A stretch of DNA of 48,698 bases, taken from positions 1-48,698 of the IMG/VR virus record IMGVR_UViG_3300044535_001635; one strand, 5' to 3'. This stretch comes from a virus. The notes beneath the pieces are model-generated. The model ran no database searches. It had not been told where the DNA came from and worked only from the letters and a program-made list of their open reading frames with translations. Shown piece after piece: positions 42,243-48,397 of the stretch (its first letter is position 1; the number at the start of each line of letters is the position of its first letter). Made by a program: the position numbers and the translations under genes.

Positions 42243-42269
42243 TTTTTTTATTTATTTGTTTTTTATTAC

Positions 42270-42277
42270 TATCTTTG
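42270..42277 (+). promoter_or_regulatory. Bacteroidetes-type -7 element before the accessory cassette
   Basis: TATCTTTG is preceded by TTAC and followed by TC, the same 14 bases as at 46212-46225. It lies five bases before the ATG at 42283, so the transcript would start at or next to the start codon (leaderless). A TTTG at 42255 is too close (11 bases) to act as -33 element, so the upstream box is weak. Confidence 0.6.
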
Positions 42278-42282
42278 TCTTT

Positions 42283-43227
42283 ATGAAAAGGAAATTATAT
42301 ATTTATACCACAAATACTTATCGAGAAAAAGGTTGGTACAAGTTTGGTGAAACAAAAAGAGAAGTAGAACTAAGAGTTAAAGAACAAGACAACGCATCAA
42401 ATCCAGAAGATTTAGAGATTATTTTCGAAATAGAAAGTACTTTGAGCGACGAACAAATTCACAATTTACTTAGATTAAAGGGTTATTCAAAGACTAGATA
42501 TAAAAAAAAGAATGAATGGTATAAAGTTTTTGAAAATGATGATCACGCAATACTGACAATAAATAAAATATTGTCAGAACAAAATGAAGACAACAGAAAA
42601 GAATATAAACCTAGAGTTTTTCAAACATACACAAAGTTACTTTTTTTAGAAAAACTAAAAAATAACACAAAAAATTTAATTAATTTTATTTTAAACTTTG
42701 CTCCAAGATTCGGTAAAACAATATGGTCAATAGATTTGTTAAAAGATTTATATGATGATTTTAACTATAAAATTTGTGTATTACCTTCATATTACCTAAC
42801 ATCACTAACATCATTTGAAAATGACTTTTATAAATTCAAAGGATATAGTGAAGAAATGATTTTAATTGATTTATCTGATGAAGATTTACATGAATTGGTA
42901 GAAGAAAATTATGGAAAAAAATTGATAATTGTTAAAGCATCTTTACATACCGAAGATTTTGAAAAAAAACTATCTTTTTTAAAAGAAATTCCTTCTAATG
43001 AAAAAATTACATTAATAGATGAGGCAGATTTTGGTACACACACTGATAATTGTCAAAAAAAGATTAACTTTATAGGTGCAAAATTAAATTTATATATGAC
43101 AGGTACTGGTATTGAAAAACTTGTCAATAAATTAGAAAACTTAGATGACAACATTATTTCTTGGTCAATAAATGATATGTTAATGACTAAGAAAGGAGAA
43201 CACCCGATTCAAAAATTTATGAAATAA
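42283..43227 (+). CDS. GIY-YIG (T5orf172-like) nuclease domain fused to SF2 helicase N-terminal half
   Basis: This protein has 314 residues from the ATG at 42283; an upstream start at 42256 would translate the promoter. Residues 1-85 match the T5orf172/MUG113 branch of GIY-YIG nucleases: KLYIYTTNT, GWYKFGETKREVELRVKEQ, a D-E-x-x-H helix and KKNEWYKVF. Residues about 105-300 are the first RecA lobe of a superfamily 2 helicase: FAPRFGKTI (Walker A, G144-K145-T146), LIDEADFG (DEAD at 246-249) and LYMTGTG (motif III-like). The protein stops where the second lobe would begin, and that lobe is the next gene. With the methylase genes it looks like a dispersed restriction-modification or genome-remodelling system. 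Confidence 0.8.
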   Translation: MKRKLYIYTTNTYREKGWYKFGETKREVELRVKEQDNASNPEDLEIIFEIESTLSDEQIHNLLRLKGYSKTRYKKKNEWYKVFENDDHAILTINKILSEQNEDNRKEYKPRVFQTYTKLLFLEKLKNNTKNLINFILNFAPRFGKTIWSIDLLKDLYDDFNYKICVLPSYYLTSLTSFENDFYKFKGYSEEMILIDLSDEDLHELVEENYGKKLIIVKASLHTEDFEKKLSFLKEIPSNEKITLIDEADFGTHTDNCQKKINFIGAKLNLYMTGTGIEKLVNKLENLDDNIISWSINDMLMTKKGEHPIQKFMK

Positions 43228-43232
43228 ATAAT

Positions 43233-44558
43233 ATGATTGAAGAAATTTTAAAAAAACTAGCTAAAGAACACACATTAAAAGAATCGATGATATCTGTAAA
43301 AGATGTTGTTGAACCGGTCTTTTTAAGACTTCGTTTAGATAATATCGTCGAAAGATTCAATCAAATACCTGACAGTTATAAAACTGATTGGAATAAATTA
43401 CTTTCAGACGTAAAATTATCTAAAGGTATTATTTCTAATTTAATAAAGGGTTTATTTGGTACATATGGCGGTAATCAAACATTTCTTTATGATTTGAATA
43501 CTAATCAACATTCACCAAAAGATGTTTCTATGATTTTTGCCAGTACACCAAATAGACAACAACAAAGATTGTTGGCAAATGTAATTAGAGAATCACTAGG
43601 TCCTCAATATACTGTTGTTATAGTTAATAGTGATGAAACTAGTAATAAAGAAGCGGAAGAATATGTGAAAATAGAAGTTGCAAGAGCTAAATTAGAAGGT
43701 AAAAAATTAGTTATTTTAAGTAATAATATGGCTTCTCGTAGTTTTTCTGTATCGGAAATTGATACTGTTTTTTTAATGTTCGATAGAGGATCTTATTCTG
43801 CAGTATCACAAAAAGTCTCAAGAGTTTTAACACCGGGACTAACATTCGATGAACAAGTAAAAAAATATGGATATATAGTATCAGTTTCATTAGATTGTAA
43901 TAGAGAGGAAATATCACCAATTGATGAATATATTATTTATGAATCAGAAAAAGTCGAAGTTGATGAACTATCTGATGGTATAAGAAGAACACTTAACTCT
44001 ATTAATATTTTCACAAATGGAGAAAGTGGGTTATTAGAACCAATAGAAATTGACGAATATTCAAAAAAACTTTTAAATTCTAGTTCACTAATAAGTTTAG
44101 GAAAATCCTCCTCAAACCCTGAAAGAATTATTAATGATGAAAATTTGGTTAAACTATTAACCGGTATTAAAATTAACAACACAAGACCTGAAGAAGAAAA
44201 ACTTTTAAGTATTGATTCATCACTGATTGAAAGAACTATAGGTAAAAAAGAATCAAAAAAACAAAAATTAGAAAAAGATAAAGTTTTTTTATTAAAAGAA
44301 AAATTAAAAAAACATCTTGAAAATATTGTTGAAAACATTGTTGAGGTTTCAGAAATAAATAATTGTGAATCTGACGACATATTAGAATGTTTAGATATGA
44401 TTATTGAAAAAGGTTATGACGATGAAGTTATTTTTGAATTAGATTTTAATTCACTAACTTTAAAAAGTATAATTAAAAGTGGTGCGGTTTCTCACAAATT
44501 ATTAAATACTATTATTACAAATTATAATAAAAACGAAAATGAGCTTAACTATAATTAA
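43233..44558 (+). CDS. SF2 helicase C-terminal half
   Basis: A 441-residue protein beginning five bases after the nuclease-helicase stop, in another frame. Residues about 100-215 form a second RecA lobe: VSMIFASTPNRQQQRLLANV (motif IV region), VILSNNMASRSFSVSEID (motif V) and SQKVSRVLTPG (motif VI, with the arginine finger R). No Walker A is present, so it cannot hydrolyse ATP alone and must pair with the upstream protein. The C-terminal 200 residues are charged and helical, without a known fold. It overlaps the methylase gene by 20 bases. The split may be natural or may reflect a frameshift around 43190-43225. Confidence 0.75.
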   Translation: MIEEILKKLAKEHTLKESMISVKDVVEPVFLRLRLDNIVERFNQIPDSYKTDWNKLLSDVKLSKGIISNLIKGLFGTYGGNQTFLYDLNTNQHSPKDVSMIFASTPNRQQQRLLANVIRESLGPQYTVVIVNSDETSNKEAEEYVKIEVARAKLEGKKLVILSNNMASRSFSVSEIDTVFLMFDRGSYSAVSQKVSRVLTPGLTFDEQVKKYGYIVSVSLDCNREEISPIDEYIIYESEKVEVDELSDGIRRTLNSINIFTNGESGLLEPIEIDEYSKKLLNSSSLISLGKSSSNPERIINDENLVKLLTGIKINNTRPEEEKLLSIDSSLIERTIGKKESKKQKLEKDKVFLLKEKLKKHLENIVENIVEVSEINNCESDDILECLDMIIEKGYDDEVIFELDFNSLTLKSIIKSGAVSHKLLNTIITNYNKNENELNYN

Positions 44559-45777
44559 AAAAACTGAAATCTCTAAATTAGATACTTTTAATAAGTGGAA
44601 ACAAAATCCAGGTAAAGGAGAGGTTTTCACACCAAATGGACTGGTTAATGAAATTTTAGATCAAATACCTACTGAAATTTGGGAAGACCCTAAATCAACT
44701 TTTTGTGATTTATCGATGGGTAAAGGAACGTTTTTAATTGAAATAGTTAATCGTCTTGTTTATATTTATAATTATACGGAGGAAGACGCAAAATCCCGTG
44801 TTTTCGGTTATGATATTCGTGTTAAATATATTAATTATTTAAAACGTAGAGGGTATAAAAATGTCTTTCATAAAGACAGTTTAACAGAAAAATTTAATAT
44901 GGAATTTGATGTTGTATTAGGAAACCCACCTTATCAGGAAGTTACTGGTGCCTCTAATGCTAAAGCAATATGGCCTAAATTTGTCCAAAAATCATTTGAT
45001 ATATGTAAAGAAGACGGTTACGTAAGTTTAATACACCCAAGTGGTTGGAGAGACGTTAAAGGTAATTTTTCACATATAAAAGATTTATTAAAGTCTAAAA
45101 ATATTAAATATTTGAATGTTAATGACTTTAATAAAGGGAAAGAAGTTTTTGGTGTCGGTACTAATTTTGATTGGTATGTTGTTGAAAATTGTAACAATAA
45201 GTGTGGTTTGACTAAAATAAATACAACAAATAATGTTGACGTTGAATATTGTTTAGATAATATGGAAGTAATACCTAACCACTCATACGATTTAATAAAT
45301 CCACTAATATATACTGGTATCGGTGAGAAAATTAATTTATTAAATTCAGAATCAACATATGCGCATAGAAAACAACATATGTCAAAAGAACAAACCGAAG
45401 ACTATGTTTATCCTTGCGTGTATACCATAACACAAAAAGATGGTATTAATTTTTGGTATTCTAAAGTTAATAATGGGCACATAGGGCAACCAAAAGTTAT
45501 TTGGTCAAACGGATTAGGTACGTACCCTATTTTAGATTTAGAAGGTCATTACGGATTAATGGAATATTCTTTTGCAATAATTGACGAACCTCAAAATTTA
45601 CCATTAATTAAAAAGGTTATGGAGAGCGATATTTTTACTAAATTAATGGATAGTGTTAGGTTTATTAATCATAGATTTCAATGGAAAACCATATCGACAT
45701 TTAGAAAAGACTTCTGGAAAGATTTTTTAGATGAAAATAACAATGTAATAGAACCTAACTATAAAAATGCTGAATGA
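44539..45777 (+). CDS. N6-adenine DNA methyltransferase (type II gamma-class, N-6_Mtase-like)
   Basis: A 412-residue enzyme. The entry motif GEVFTPNGLVNEILDQIP and the SAM loop FCDLSMGKGTFLIE (motif I, residues 55-66), the acidic end of strand 2 (VFGYDIRV) and motif IV VVLGNPPYQEV (N129-P130-P131-Y132) define an adenine-N6 methylase. The remaining 260 residues contain a target-recognition-like region (for example SLIHPSGWRDVKGNFSHIKD). It overlaps the helicase gene by 20 bases and the next gene by 11, indicating one operon. As methylase of the cassette it could protect phage DNA from the associated nuclease. Confidence 0.88.
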   Translation: MSLTIIKKTEISKLDTFNKWKQNPGKGEVFTPNGLVNEILDQIPTEIWEDPKSTFCDLSMGKGTFLIEIVNRLVYIYNYTEEDAKSRVFGYDIRVKYINYLKRRGYKNVFHKDSLTEKFNMEFDVVLGNPPYQEVTGASNAKAIWPKFVQKSFDICKEDGYVSLIHPSGWRDVKGNFSHIKDLLKSKNIKYLNVNDFNKGKEVFGVGTNFDWYVVENCNNKCGLTKINTTNNVDVEYCLDNMEVIPNHSYDLINPLIYTGIGEKINLLNSESTYAHRKQHMSKEQTEDYVYPCVYTITQKDGINFWYSKVNNGHIGQPKVIWSNGLGTYPILDLEGHYGLMEYSFAIIDEPQNLPLIKKVMESDIFTKLMDSVRFINHRFQWKTISTFRKDFWKDFLDENNNVIEPNYKNAE

Positions 45778-46186
45778 TTATAAAAACCACATAAGAAATA
45801 GAGTTTACATGTCAGGAATTGATAGAGATAAACTCAGAATAAAAAAAACTGCTGAGGTTTTTACACCACAGCATTTGGTAATCGAAATGTTAGATAAGTT
45901 AGAACAGGAAAATCCTGAATTGTTCACGGACCCAACAAAAACCTTTATAGATAACAGTTGTGGTGATGGTGAATTTTTAGGTGAAATAGTTATTAGAAAA
46001 ATGGAAAGAAGTGGATGTAGTTTAGAACAGGCGTTATCCACAACATATGGTGTTGACTTAATGGAAGACAATGTTGAAGAATGTAAAAAAAGACTTGCAG
46101 GACCAAACCCAACTGAAGAAATATTAGAAATTTTGAATAAAAATATTATTTGTGCCGATGGTTTAACTTTTGATTATAATTTTTAA
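45767..46186 (+). CDS. truncated N6-methylase-like protein (SAM domain without NPPY)
   Basis: A 139-residue protein resembling the N-terminal part of a DNA methylase: TAEVFTPQHLVIEMLDKL, motif I FIDNSCGDGEFLGE (D62 to L71), the strand-2 region TYGVDLMEDNVEECKKR and a third strand IICADGLTFDYNF, directly after which the protein ends. The catalytic NPPY motif expected about 15-20 residues later is absent. It could be a decayed methylase, a SAM-binding regulator or a partner of the complete methylase whose gene it overlaps by 11 bases. A later ATG at 45809 would remove only the basic start. Confidence 0.75.
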   Translation: MLNDYKNHIRNRVYMSGIDRDKLRIKKTAEVFTPQHLVIEMLDKLEQENPELFTDPTKTFIDNSCGDGEFLGEIVIRKMERSGCSLEQALSTTYGVDLMEDNVEECKKRLAGPNPTEEILEILNKNIICADGLTFDYNF

Positions 46187-46215
46187 AAAAATTAGTTTAG
46201 AAAACAAAATTTTAC

Positions 46216-46223
46216 TATCTTTG
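46216..46223 (+). promoter_or_regulatory. Bacteroidetes-type promoter before the sigma/methyltransferase operon
   Basis: TATCTTTG within TTACTATCTTTGTC (46212-46225) matches the TAnnTTTG consensus. A possible -33 element TTAG lies at 46197-46200, with a shorter than usual spacing of 15 bases. A leader of about 15 bases would precede the ATG at 46244. Confidence 0.65.
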
Positions 46224-46243
46224 TCAAACCAAATTAAAAATCT

Positions 46244-46780
46244 ATGAAATACTTACTATTCGTCTATCCCTGTAATGAAACGTGGGATAAAAAAGAAACC
46301 AACCTTAAAATAGCAGAAGAACTATCAACAATTTCAAAAGCCGATGATATTACTTTTGTTTATGGAGACAATCACACCATATTCCATTTTGATTCTGATA
46401 TGTGCCAACCAGAACTTACAATCTATATTGATTTAATATATGATGAATCACCAGATTTTATGTACGTACTTGTCCAGACCTCAAAGACAATCACATCGAA
46501 TATGCCTCCAGAACATTTGGAACATCTGAAGAAATTAAATAAGAAAGGAAGGAAACCAAAAACACAAAATCGCGTTAAAGAAATATTTATAGATAAAACC
46601 CCAGCTTTCGATATCAAGAAATTTATGGAAGAACACAACGCTCGTGTTGAAGAATTTGTAAAAAATCAAATATGTGATTTGACTCTTGACGAAATTTTAG
46701 ATAAGATTTCAAGTCAGGGTATGGAATCACTCACAAGAGCTGAAAAAGACAAATTAGATGAATACTCAAAACAAATATAA
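46244..46780 (+). CDS. hypothetical protein with DUF6576-like C-terminal tail
   Basis: A 178-residue protein preceding the sigma gene by one base. The N-terminal 90 residues are alpha/beta (MKYLLFVYPCNETWDKKE; ELTIYIDLIYDESPDFMYVL), followed by a basic linker (KKLNKKGRKPKTQNRVK). The last about 30 residues (LDEILDKISSQGMESLTRAE, then KDKLDEYSK) closely resemble the short C-terminal motif, DUF6576, that I know from Bacteroidetes rhomboid-family and other proteins. The tight coupling to the sigma gene suggests a co-regulator, but this is inference. The start is the ATG behind the promoter at 46216. Confidence 0.75.
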   Translation: MKYLLFVYPCNETWDKKETNLKIAEELSTISKADDITFVYGDNHTIFHFDSDMCQPELTIYIDLIYDESPDFMYVLVQTSKTITSNMPPEHLEHLKKLNKKGRKPKTQNRVKEIFIDKTPAFDIKKFMEEHNARVEEFVKNQICDLTLDEILDKISSQGMESLTRAEKDKLDEYSKQI

Positions 46781-46781
46781 T

Positions 46782-47582
46782 ATGAAGGAAAAAAACCAAG
46801 GAGCACCTATTAACCAAGACGAAATTTATCACTATCTTAAAGATATCAGAAAGATTAAGGTTATGACACCTGATCGTGAAAAACAATTGGCATTAAAAAT
46901 GAAATCAGATGAAATTTCTGATAGAGAAAGAAGAAAAATAGAAGAAGAACTATTAGAAGGTAATTTACGATTTGTAATTACTGTTGCTAAACAATACCAA
47001 AACCAAGGTCTTGATTTACCAGACCTTATTGCTGAAGGAAACTTAGGTCTTATGAAAGCAATTAAAAACTTTGATTGGAACAAAGATTTGAGATTTATTT
47101 CTTATGCTGTGTGGTGGGTTAAACAATCAATTATCCAATCATTAAATGATAATGCAAGAACAATTAGACTACCAGTTAATGTTGTCCAGGATTTACATAA
47201 AGCAAAAAAAGAAGTTGAGCAGACAGGTAAAAAACTTGATGATAAATTTGCCGGGTTACCATCTATTATAAATCTTGATATGAATATCAACGAAGACGGT
47301 GATACTCTTATTGACTTAATTGAAAACCACGATGCTGTTGCACCAGACGCTGGATTTAACACCAAAGACATTCTAAAGGACAAGTTATTATCGTTACTTA
47401 ACGTATTAGATGACCGTGAAAAATCTATCATCGGAGACTACTTTGGTCTTACGGGCACACCAAGAACATTAGAAGATATTGGTTCTGACTTTAACCTTAC
47501 AAAAGAAAGGGTAAGACAGATAAAAGAGAAAGCTCTTCGTAGACTTCGTAATGAATCATCTGAATTATTTGACTATCTATGA
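46782..47582 (+). CDS. sigma-70 family RNA polymerase sigma factor (RpoD-like, lacking sigma-3)
   Basis: A 266-residue sigma factor from the ATG at 46782, preferred because it follows the upstream stop by one base; the ATG at 46758 lies inside the preceding gene. It has region 1.2 (DEIYHYLKDIRKIKVMTPDR), region 2 (LRFVITVAKQYQNQGLDLPD, LIAEGNLGLMKAIKNFDW, FISYAVWWVKQSIIQSL), the region 3.2 finger (NINEDGDTLIDLIENHDA) and region 4 with the HTH TLEDIGSDFNLTKERVRQIK. Between RLPVNV and the finger only about 55 residues remain, and the usual sigma-3 helix-turn-helix is not evident. It most resembles short primary sigma factors of Bacteroidetes. It likely redirects host polymerase to phage promoters, the functional counterpart of T4 gp55. 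Confidence 0.92.
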   Translation: MKEKNQGAPINQDEIYHYLKDIRKIKVMTPDREKQLALKMKSDEISDRERRKIEEELLEGNLRFVITVAKQYQNQGLDLPDLIAEGNLGLMKAIKNFDWNKDLRFISYAVWWVKQSIIQSLNDNARTIRLPVNVVQDLHKAKKEVEQTGKKLDDKFAGLPSIINLDMNINEDGDTLIDLIENHDAVAPDAGFNTKDILKDKLLSLLNVLDDREKSIIGDYFGLTGTPRTLEDIGSDFNLTKERVRQIKEKALRRLRNESSELFDYL

Positions 47583-48397
47583 TGAATGTACTAAGTCTTT
47601 TCGATGGGATGTCCTGTGGACAAATTGCACTTAACAAAGCTGGTATTAAGTATGATAAATATTTTTCATCTGAAATAGATAAGTTTGCAATACAAGTAAC
47701 CCAACATAATTATCCGGAAACAATCCAGATTGGTGATGTAACACAAGTAAAGGGTTCTGACCTACCACAAATAGATTTACTTATTGGTGGTAGTCCGTGT
47801 CAGGGATTTTCATTTGCCGGTAAACAATTAAATTTTGATGATGAACGAAGTAAATTGTTTTTTGAGTTTGTAAGGTTAATGGAAGAATGTAAACCAAAGT
47901 ACTTTTTACTTGAAAATGTTGTAATGAAAAAAGAATATGAGGATGTTATAACAGAACATATGGGTGTAAAACCGATTCTTATAAATAGTAATCTTGTATC
48001 AGCACAAAATAGGAAAAGACTTTACTGGACCAACATACCAAACATAGAACAACCTAAAGATTCAAACATAACAATGTCTAACATACTTTTAAGTGGACAA
48101 CACATAATTGTTTCAAAACAAAAAAAGGAACATAAACCTGGTGGTGATAAGTCAGCAACATTACTTGCAAGAGACTACAAAGGATTTGGTAATCAACAAA
48201 TGAGTGGTGTTATGGATAATGGTAATATTAGAATGTTAACACCAGTAGAATATGAAAGATTACAAAATGTTCCAGATAATTATTCATCCACTGCTTCAAA
48301 CACCCAAAGGTATAAAATGTTAGGAAATGGGTGGACTGTAGGTGTTATAGAACATATCTTTAAAAATATGGAATATGAATGTATTGAGTCTATTTGA
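47579..48397 (+). CDS. C5-cytosine DNA methyltransferase
   Basis: A 272-residue enzyme with a complete motif set: I (VLSLFDGMSCGQIAL), IV (GGSPCQGFSFAG, catalytic C74), VI (FLLENVVM), VIII (QNRKRLYW), IX (LTPVEYERLQNVPD) and X (GNGWTVGVIEHIF). The target-recognition region between VIII and IX is short (about 60 residues), suggesting a simple target. The start overlaps the sigma stop (ATGA); the ATG at 47582 gives the same start (MNVLSLFDG) as the following paralogue and may be the true one. No partner restriction enzyme is adjacent, so it probably protects phage DNA from host restriction. Confidence 0.93.
   Translation: MMNVLSLFDGMSCGQIALNKAGIKYDKYFSSEIDKFAIQVTQHNYPETIQIGDVTQVKGSDLPQIDLLIGGSPCQGFSFAGKQLNFDDERSKLFFEFVRLMEECKPKYFLLENVVMKKEYEDVITEHMGVKPILINSNLVSAQNRKRLYWTNIPNIEQPKDSNITMSNILLSGQHIIVSKQKKEHKPGGDKSATLLARDYKGFGNQQMSGVMDNGNIRMLTPVEYERLQNVPDNYSSTASNTQRYKMLGNGWTVGVIEHIFKNMEYECIESI

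What the first reader, a model, noticed from the sequence alone, without database searches (positions are those of the whole stretch)
42283..46186. Phage-borne nuclease-helicase-methylase cassette of unusual composition
Four overlapping or adjacent genes behind one promoter encode a GIY-YIG (T5orf172-like) nuclease fused to a helicase half, the other helicase half, a full N6-adenine methylase and a methylase lacking NPPY. The parts are those of a type ISP/type I-like restriction-modification machine, but with a GIY-YIG nuclease and spread over four proteins, inserted between gp46 and the sigma gene. It could exclude competing phages, degrade host DNA while phage DNA is methylated, or modify phage DNA. 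This is the best candidate here for an undescribed system.
Basis: partly seen in the sequence, partly recalled or inferred. Interest (0 to 1): 0.85.

Follow-up and report, generated by a model that had tools for sequence, protein, structure and literature searches.

The report
Phage-borne split restriction-modification machine
A bacterial virus carries a four-gene kit that looks like a DNA-cutting and DNA-marking machine of the DrdVI kind known from bacteria, with its motor and its marking enzyme divided over separate proteins; dozens of related virus sequences carry the same kit, so a defence tool of bacteria seems to have become common virus equipment.

Summary
Four genes at 42283-46186 encode (g1) a GIY-YIG nuclease plus RecA1 of an SF2 motor, (g2) RecA2 plus a helical tail, (g3) a gamma-type N6-adenine methylase, and (g4) a methylase N-half that stops before NPPY. 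They are not debris: the order recurs in dozens of distinct phage sequences as 4, 3 or 2 genes, sometimes with g1-g3 as one ~1,150-1,270-aa chain whose model best matches the type ISP enzyme LlaBIII. The nearest named system is bacterial DrdVI (M1, M2 and a GIY-YIG 'fused translocase and REase'; GCAGCC, 6mA), so this is a phage variant of a known kind, with reversed gene order and a split motor. New here: g4 looks like a separate AdoMet-binding half (74 of 76 g4 keep motif I, one has an xPPY; 40 of 64 partner methylases have a degenerate or missing AdoMet half); the g3-g4 pair stands with either a GIY-YIG motor or an Mrr-type nuclease plus helicase; and one locus has four g3 copies with a shared N-part and different recognition parts. 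Most likely use: methylate phage DNA and cut unmethylated host or rival DNA. No activity has been shown.

The parts
42267..42279 (+). promoter-like motif TACTATCTTTGTC upstream of g1; the same 13 bases lie at 46213-46225, upstream of the gene after g4
   Evidence: exact pattern search: 2 matches, none in 100 shuffles; function inferred from resemblance to the Bacteroidota TAnnTTTG box, which by itself is not enriched
42283..43227 (+). g1: GIY-YIG (MUG113) nuclease domain (about 42283-42570) followed by RecA1 of an SF2 motor (RFGKT at 42706-42720, DEAD at 43018-43029)
   Evidence: PF13455 E 1.8e-5; conserved G22, R31, H60, E78, RxGKT, DE; hhalign to DrdVI-type R E 1e-14
43233..44558 (+). g2: RecA2 of the same motor (Q..SR motif at 43809-43823) and a helical C-terminal part
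   Evidence: phrog_16 DNA helicase E 3e-4, Helicase_C 0.039; fused to g1 in L033 and L046
44539..45777 (+). g3: N6-adenine methylase with motif X, motif I (DLSMGKGTF), NPPY at 44923-44934 and a variable C-terminal part, presumed target recognition
   Evidence: PF07669 E 3e-14, PF02384 E 4e-6; hhalign to M2.DrdVI E 3e-17; C-terminal part 25% identical where g4 is 82%
45767..46186 (+). g4: N-half of a methylase: motif X (EVFTP, 45854-45868) and motif I (DNSCGDGEF, 45950-45976), ending before motif IV; presumed separate AdoMet-binding subunit
   Evidence: phrog_11371 E 3e-18; hhalign to M1.DrdVI E 6e-24; motif counts over 76 relatives

Best explanation
A phage-borne, ATP-dependent restriction-modification machine of the DrdVI kind, divided over four proteins. 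g3 plus g4 form the methylase and target-recognition unit: g3 gives the NPPY catalytic half and the recognition part, and g4 gives (in this window perhaps doubles) the AdoMet-binding half. g1 plus g2 assemble into one SF2 double-strand DNA translocase with a GIY-YIG nuclease at its N-terminus. At an unmethylated asymmetric site the recognition unit would start the motor and the GIY-YIG domain would cut; at methylated sites it would not. The phage's own DNA would arrive methylated from the previous cell, so the targets would be the host chromosome and competing phages. Shown here: the four genes, their conserved motifs, recurrence, natural fusions, and homology to DrdVI for g1, g3 and g4. Inferred: subunit assembly, AdoMet binding by g4, site-specific methylation, cleavage, and the role in infection.
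For: Same order in dozens of distinct phage loci with four gene partitions, including g1+g2+g3 in one chain. GIY-YIG glycine 42/42, acidic residue 41/42 (E), Walker RxGK 42/42 over diverse relatives. Model of fused relative L046: top Foldseek match LlaBIII, type ISP, E 8e-16. g4 vs M1.DrdVI E 6e-24, g3 vs M2.DrdVI 3e-17, g1 vs DrdVI-type R 1e-14; DrdVI methylates GCAGCC (6mA) and its R is a GIY-YIG translocase-nuclease. The g3-g4 pair occurs with either GIY-YIG motor (46 of 82 loci) or Mrr-type nuclease plus helicase (11), never both. g3 recognition parts are exchanged while g4 and the g3 N-part are conserved. g4 keeps motif I in 74 of 76 while 40 of 64 partners have a degenerate or no AdoMet half.
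Against: No activity data. In this window g3 has its own intact-looking AdoMet half, so g4 may be redundant or regulatory here. g2 alone matches the DrdVI motor only weakly (hhalign E 0.011). A lytic phage gains only if its DNA is already methylated on entry, which is not shown. The L046 model is poor over the methylase.
Confidence: 0.72

Rival explanations
1. Modification only: the phage uses g3 (and g4) to methylate its DNA against host restriction, and the nuclease-motor part no longer cuts or only regulates methylation.
For: Anti-restriction methylation is the usual explanation for phage methylases (jumbo-phage review); some relatives have g3-g4 without an identified nuclease within the sequence held.
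Against: GIY-YIG and Walker residues are conserved across diverse relatives; loss of the GIY-YIG module goes with gain of an Mrr-type nuclease and helicase in 11 loci.
Confidence: 0.13
2. g3 is a complete methylase by itself and g4 is a second, degenerate or regulatory methylase-like protein, not a half of the enzyme.
For: In the window, L001, L028, L033 and L046 g3 has motif X, motif I and NPPY.
Against: g4 is the most conserved part (median 82%) and keeps motif I in 74 of 76, while 35 of 64 partners have a degenerate and 5 no AdoMet half; NPPY-half and g4-type half occur as overlapping genes in P-SSM2 and as one permuted protein in Aeh1; DrdVI M1 and M2 are assigned one motif with a single adenine.
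Confidence: 0.25
3. g1-g2 is a recombination or repair nuclease-helicase (the jumbo-phage review proposes such a role for phage T5orf172 proteins) that merely lies next to a methylase.
For: It lies beside gp46/gp47 recombination genes here and in L001; the RecA core resembles RadD (Z 20); proposal in PMC7824862.
Against: Fusion of g1-g2 with g3 in one chain and constant adjacency to g3-g4 in loci away from gp46 such as S-CAM7.
Confidence: 0.07
4. A single type IIG/ISP-like gene broken by frameshifts (real decay or assembly errors), so that the four ORFs are fragments.
For: One-chain forms of g1-g3 exist (L003, L005, L046), and the break lies between two domains.
Against: The same split, with its own start codon and varying spacing, is seen in relative L001 and in an isolated cyanophage, S-CAM7 MT586120; g2 of window, L001 and L028 starts with residues absent from the fused forms; all motifs are intact.
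Confidence: 0.03

Closest known systems
DrdVI restriction-modification system (Deinococcus wulumuqiensis 479 plasmid pDrdVI; REBASE type IIG; M1-2.DrdVI, GCAGCC, 6mA)
   Same: Small M1 with motif X and I (g4-like), Eco57I-type M2 (g3-like), GIY-YIG plus SF2 translocase R (g1+g2-like), adjacent genes
   Different: Bacterial plasmid; order M1-M2-R (phage R-M2-M1); R is one 851-aa chain (here two proteins); M1 212 aa (here 139)
Type ISP enzymes LlaBIII and LlaGI
   Same: Order nuclease - SF2 translocase - N6-adenine gamma-methylase - recognition part in the fused relatives; top Foldseek match of the L046 model
   Different: Nuclease is GIY-YIG, not Mrr/PD-(D/E)XK; extra subunit g4; split over four proteins in this window
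Synechococcus phage S-CAM7 genes annotated 'type II restriction-modification system restriction subunit' and 'DNA methyltransferase'
   Same: Same cassette in phages: four-gene form in MT586120, three-gene form in NC_031927
   Different: Database annotation only; the g4 gene is called hypothetical; no study was found
Chlorovirus-encoded restriction-modification systems
   Same: Virus-encoded methylase with companion nuclease, held to degrade host DNA (PMC7019647)
   Different: Unrelated simple type II enzymes in viruses of algae; no translocase

Membership tests
DrdVI-type restriction-modification | GIY-YIG nuclease joined to an SF2 translocase | tested here: met
   g1: PF13455 E 1.8e-5, catalytic and Walker residues conserved; hhalign to DrdVI-type R E 1e-14
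DrdVI-type restriction-modification | motor's second half homologous to the DrdVI motor | tested here: inconclusive
   g2: hhalign E 0.011, probability 4%, colinear over 311 columns; fused to g1 in relatives
DrdVI-type restriction-modification | M2: Eco57I-type methylase with NPPY | tested here: met
   g3, hhalign to M2.DrdVI E 3e-17
DrdVI-type restriction-modification | M1: small methylase-like partner with motifs X and I | tested here: met
   g4, hhalign to M1.DrdVI E 6e-24
DrdVI-type restriction-modification | gene order M1-M2-R with R as one chain | tested here: not met
   order is R-M2-M1 and R is split in the window; gene order and gene partition vary among relatives, so treated as non-essential
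DrdVI-type restriction-modification | 6mA at a defined asymmetric motif; methylation-sensitive cleavage | not testable with these tools
   needs a methylome and an enzyme assay
Type ISP | N-terminal Mrr-type nuclease | tested here: not met
   GIY-YIG instead; definition from PMC3874165
Type ISP | single polypeptide nuclease-translocase-methylase-TRD | tested here: not met
   four proteins in the window; g1-g3 are one chain in L003, L005 and L046
Type ISP | LlaBIII-like overall fold | tested here: inconclusive
   top Foldseek match 4xqk, E 8e-16; VIA Z 18.8 but rmsd 22 over 535 residues; model pLDDT 58, methylase part low

The most novel reading that the evidence does not exclude
A combinatorial phage restriction-modification machine in which one separate, nearly invariant AdoMet-binding subunit (g4) serves interchangeable NPPY/target-recognition subunits (up to four g3 copies at one locus) and is paired with interchangeable cutting modules (GIY-YIG motor or Mrr-type nuclease plus helicase), the motor itself working as two separate RecA halves.
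Probability: 0.35. Interest if true: 0.78.

Novelty: new variant of a known kind. Interest (0 to 1): 0.57.

Why it matters
Restriction-modification is thought of as a bacterial weapon against phages. This cassette, found through a g4 family with 420 confirmed relatives in uncultivated virus contigs and present in cultured cyanophages, suggests that large phages widely carry an ATP-dependent version of their own, much as chloroviruses do in algae. It offers a testable split N6-adenine methylase with a separable AdoMet half, a natural two-piece SF2 motor, and exchangeable recognition and nuclease modules, all useful for understanding how type I, ISP and IIG enzymes are assembled and evolve. It also gives a likely role to genes now called hypothetical, notably g4 (phrog_4376, phrog_11371).

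Tried and rejected
Frameshifted or misassembled single gene: rejected, as split and intact forms recur with proper starts. Stand-alone repair GIY-YIG-helicase: unlikely because of fusion with the methylase. A model of the permuted Aeh1p090 fusion, meant to show g3-g4 complementation, failed (pLDDT 48, four sequences). The g1 profile A3 was too diverse for a collection scan and A1 too diverse for the bacterial scan, so a narrower g4 alignment was used. A query with one L085 g3 found no further tandem arrays (patterns of a single protein find close relatives only), so the array is one example. TAnnTTTG boxes alone are not enriched. Pfam does not recognise the N-terminal domains of L059 and L062, the small neighbour in L051, or several Mrr-like neighbours. 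Phmmer of g4 alone against solved structures gave nothing; profiles hit adenine methylases such as BseCI and CamA-like 7lni. Literature searches for the phage cassette, PDC-S57, cyanophage restriction subunits and split methylases found no description; the library lacks most subscription papers, so this does not prove absence.
Full report
WHAT IS THERE. Four same-strand genes lie at 42283-46186 between gp46 and a DUF6576/sigma pair. g1 (314 aa) has a GIY-YIG domain (PF13455, E 1.8e-5) followed by RecA1 of an SF2 ATPase; g2 (441 aa) has RecA2 and a helical tail; g3 (412 aa) is an Eco57I-type N6-adenine methylase with motifs X, I and NPPY; g4 (139 aa) has motifs X and I and stops before NPPY. 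A 13-base promoter-like motif occurs exactly twice in the window, just before g1 and just after g4.

IT IS A CONSERVED CASSETTE. A scan of IMG/VR with the g4 profile gave 420 confirmed relatives, of which the best 80 were kept. Profile searches over the fetched loci showed the order g1-g2-g3-g4 again and again, partitioned as g1|g2|g3|g4, g1+g2|g3|g4, g1|g2+g3|g4 or g1+g2+g3|g4. The small g4 stays a separate gene 3' of g3 in these cassettes, though the loci were drawn by g4, which may favour stand-alone copies. L001 has the cassette at the same place, between gp46 and sigma; cultured Synechococcus phages S-CAM7 have it in another setting, one isolate in four genes, another in three; L003 and L005 have g1-g3 as one chain of 1267-1274 aa. 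On a tree of the motor the window groups with L028, L001, L033 and L046 (SH-aLRT 100), which with it show four different gene partitions; split versus fused needs at least 8 changes over 46 rows (quick method, some long branches). A scan of 84,980 bacterial and archaeal species genomes with the phage-type g4 gave only four hits, all in metagenome-assembled genomes; the more distant DrdVI-type M1 would not be caught by that pattern.

THE ENZYME PARTS LOOK ALIVE. Over 42 diverse g1 N-termini the YIG glycine is 42/42, the glutamate of the EW/EV motif 41/42, Walker RxGK 42/42 and the Q-motif glutamine 42/42. The AlphaFold model of the fused relative L046 is good for about residues 1-590 and poor beyond (mean pLDDT 58); its best Foldseek match is LlaBIII, a type ISP enzyme (E 8e-16, 1101 columns). 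VIA-align gives RadD Z 20 on the RecA core and LlaBIII Z 18.8 (535 residues, rmsd 22, so the domains are placed differently).

g4 AS A SEPARATE AdoMet HALF. Of 76 distinct g4 proteins 75 keep motif X, 74 motif I and one has an xPPY. Of 64 adjoining g3 partners 59 have a recognised NPP[YF]; 19 also have a recognisable motif I, 35 have a degenerate one and 5 start near NPPY with no AdoMet half (regular-expression classes, so approximate). P-SSM2 has an NPPY half and a g4-type half as overlapping genes, and Aeromonas phages Aeh1 and 65 carry them as one permuted protein, NPPY first, X-I last. So in many phages the pair, not g3 alone, makes a full methylase. In this window g3 still has its own AdoMet half, so here g4's part is less certain. 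An attempt to model the permuted fusion failed.

EXCHANGE OF RECOGNITION AND NUCLEASE PARTS. Among the window and four close relatives, median identity is 82% for g4, 71% for g3 up to NPPY, 58% for g2 and 25% for the g3 C-terminal part; L028 also has a different GIY-YIG subtype. L085 has four g3 genes whose 110 residues up to NPPY are 65-87% identical while the rest is 23-27% identical, with one g4. In 11 loci the g3-g4 pair stands with an Mrr-type PD-(D/E)XK nuclease (PF13156 E 2.4e-6 in L063) and a separate helicase instead of g1-g2; none of 57 loci has both. Exchange of recognition parts and of unrelated nucleases around one methylase is what restriction-modification systems do.

NEAREST KNOWN SYSTEM. 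On plasmid pDrdVI of Deinococcus wulumuqiensis 479 and on a Rhizobium plasmid the genes are a small methylase-like protein, an Eco57I methylase and a GIY-YIG/helicase protein. A Pediococcus plasmid has the last two as one 1417-aa chain. The published system is M1-2.DrdVI, GCAGCC, 6mA, type IIG (PMC6430315), and DrdVI is called 'a fused translocase and REase' (PMC4996451). g4, g3 and g1 match M1, M2 and R with hhalign E-values 6e-24, 3e-17 and 1e-14; g2 only weakly. GCAGCC has one adenine in both strands together, so M1 and M2 make a single mark, as expected if they are two halves of one enzyme; this is inference, as the need for M1 was not reported. The phage form differs by reversed order, the split motor and a shorter M1. 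Therefore: a new variant of a known kind, not an undescribed system.

MECHANISM AND ROLE. Best reading: g3-g4 recognise an asymmetric site and methylate adenine; at unmethylated sites g1-g2 translocate and cut. If the phage genome arrives methylated, the victims would be host and rival DNA. Chloroviruses give a precedent: viral restriction enzymes are held to degrade host DNA and were not responsible for exclusion of other viruses (PMC7019647). Which role applies here is open; host degradation is slightly favoured, by that analogy only.

LIMITS. No biochemistry; host unknown (the promoter motif suggests Bacteroidota, from general knowledge); the survey used the 80 best of 420 loci plus named phages; several contigs end inside the cassette; the paper library is partial.

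Noticed in passing
window 47579-48397: A C5-cytosine methylase gene (PF00145, E 9e-49) directly after the sigma gene: the phage may modify its DNA in a second way.
   Followed up: no
L085 680-6989 (same contig as L111): Four intact g3 copies, three of them between g1 and g2, with near-identical N-parts and unrelated C-parts: looks like an array of recognition specificities sharing one g4.
   Followed up: partly
L063, L067, L089, L091, L096, L097, L040, L044, L070, L015, L025: Alternative cassette: DEAD helicase, Mrr-type nuclease of about 190 aa, g3 with degenerate AdoMet half, and g4, in place of the GIY-YIG motor.
   Followed up: partly
L022 2660-7414 (Prevotella phage Lak-B2, read with TAG=Q): A helicase, a nuclease-like protein, an NPPY methylase half and a g4-type gene with one recoded TAG codon; a second NPPY-half fragment lies on the opposite strand in between.
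   Followed up: no
L051 5418-5996: Next to gp46 a small protein that by eye resembles a stand-alone GIY-YIG nuclease (no Pfam match), followed by an NPPY half and g4.
   Followed up: no
L108 7947-8534 (Magnetospirillum MAG): A phage-type g4 in a bacterial contig beside an integrase-like gene and, on the other strand, a restriction helicase-like fragment.
   Followed up: no
window 46244-46780: Gene after the cassette has a C-terminal DUF6576 match (PF20216, E 1.3e-11), function unknown, kept next to sigma in L001.
   Followed up: no
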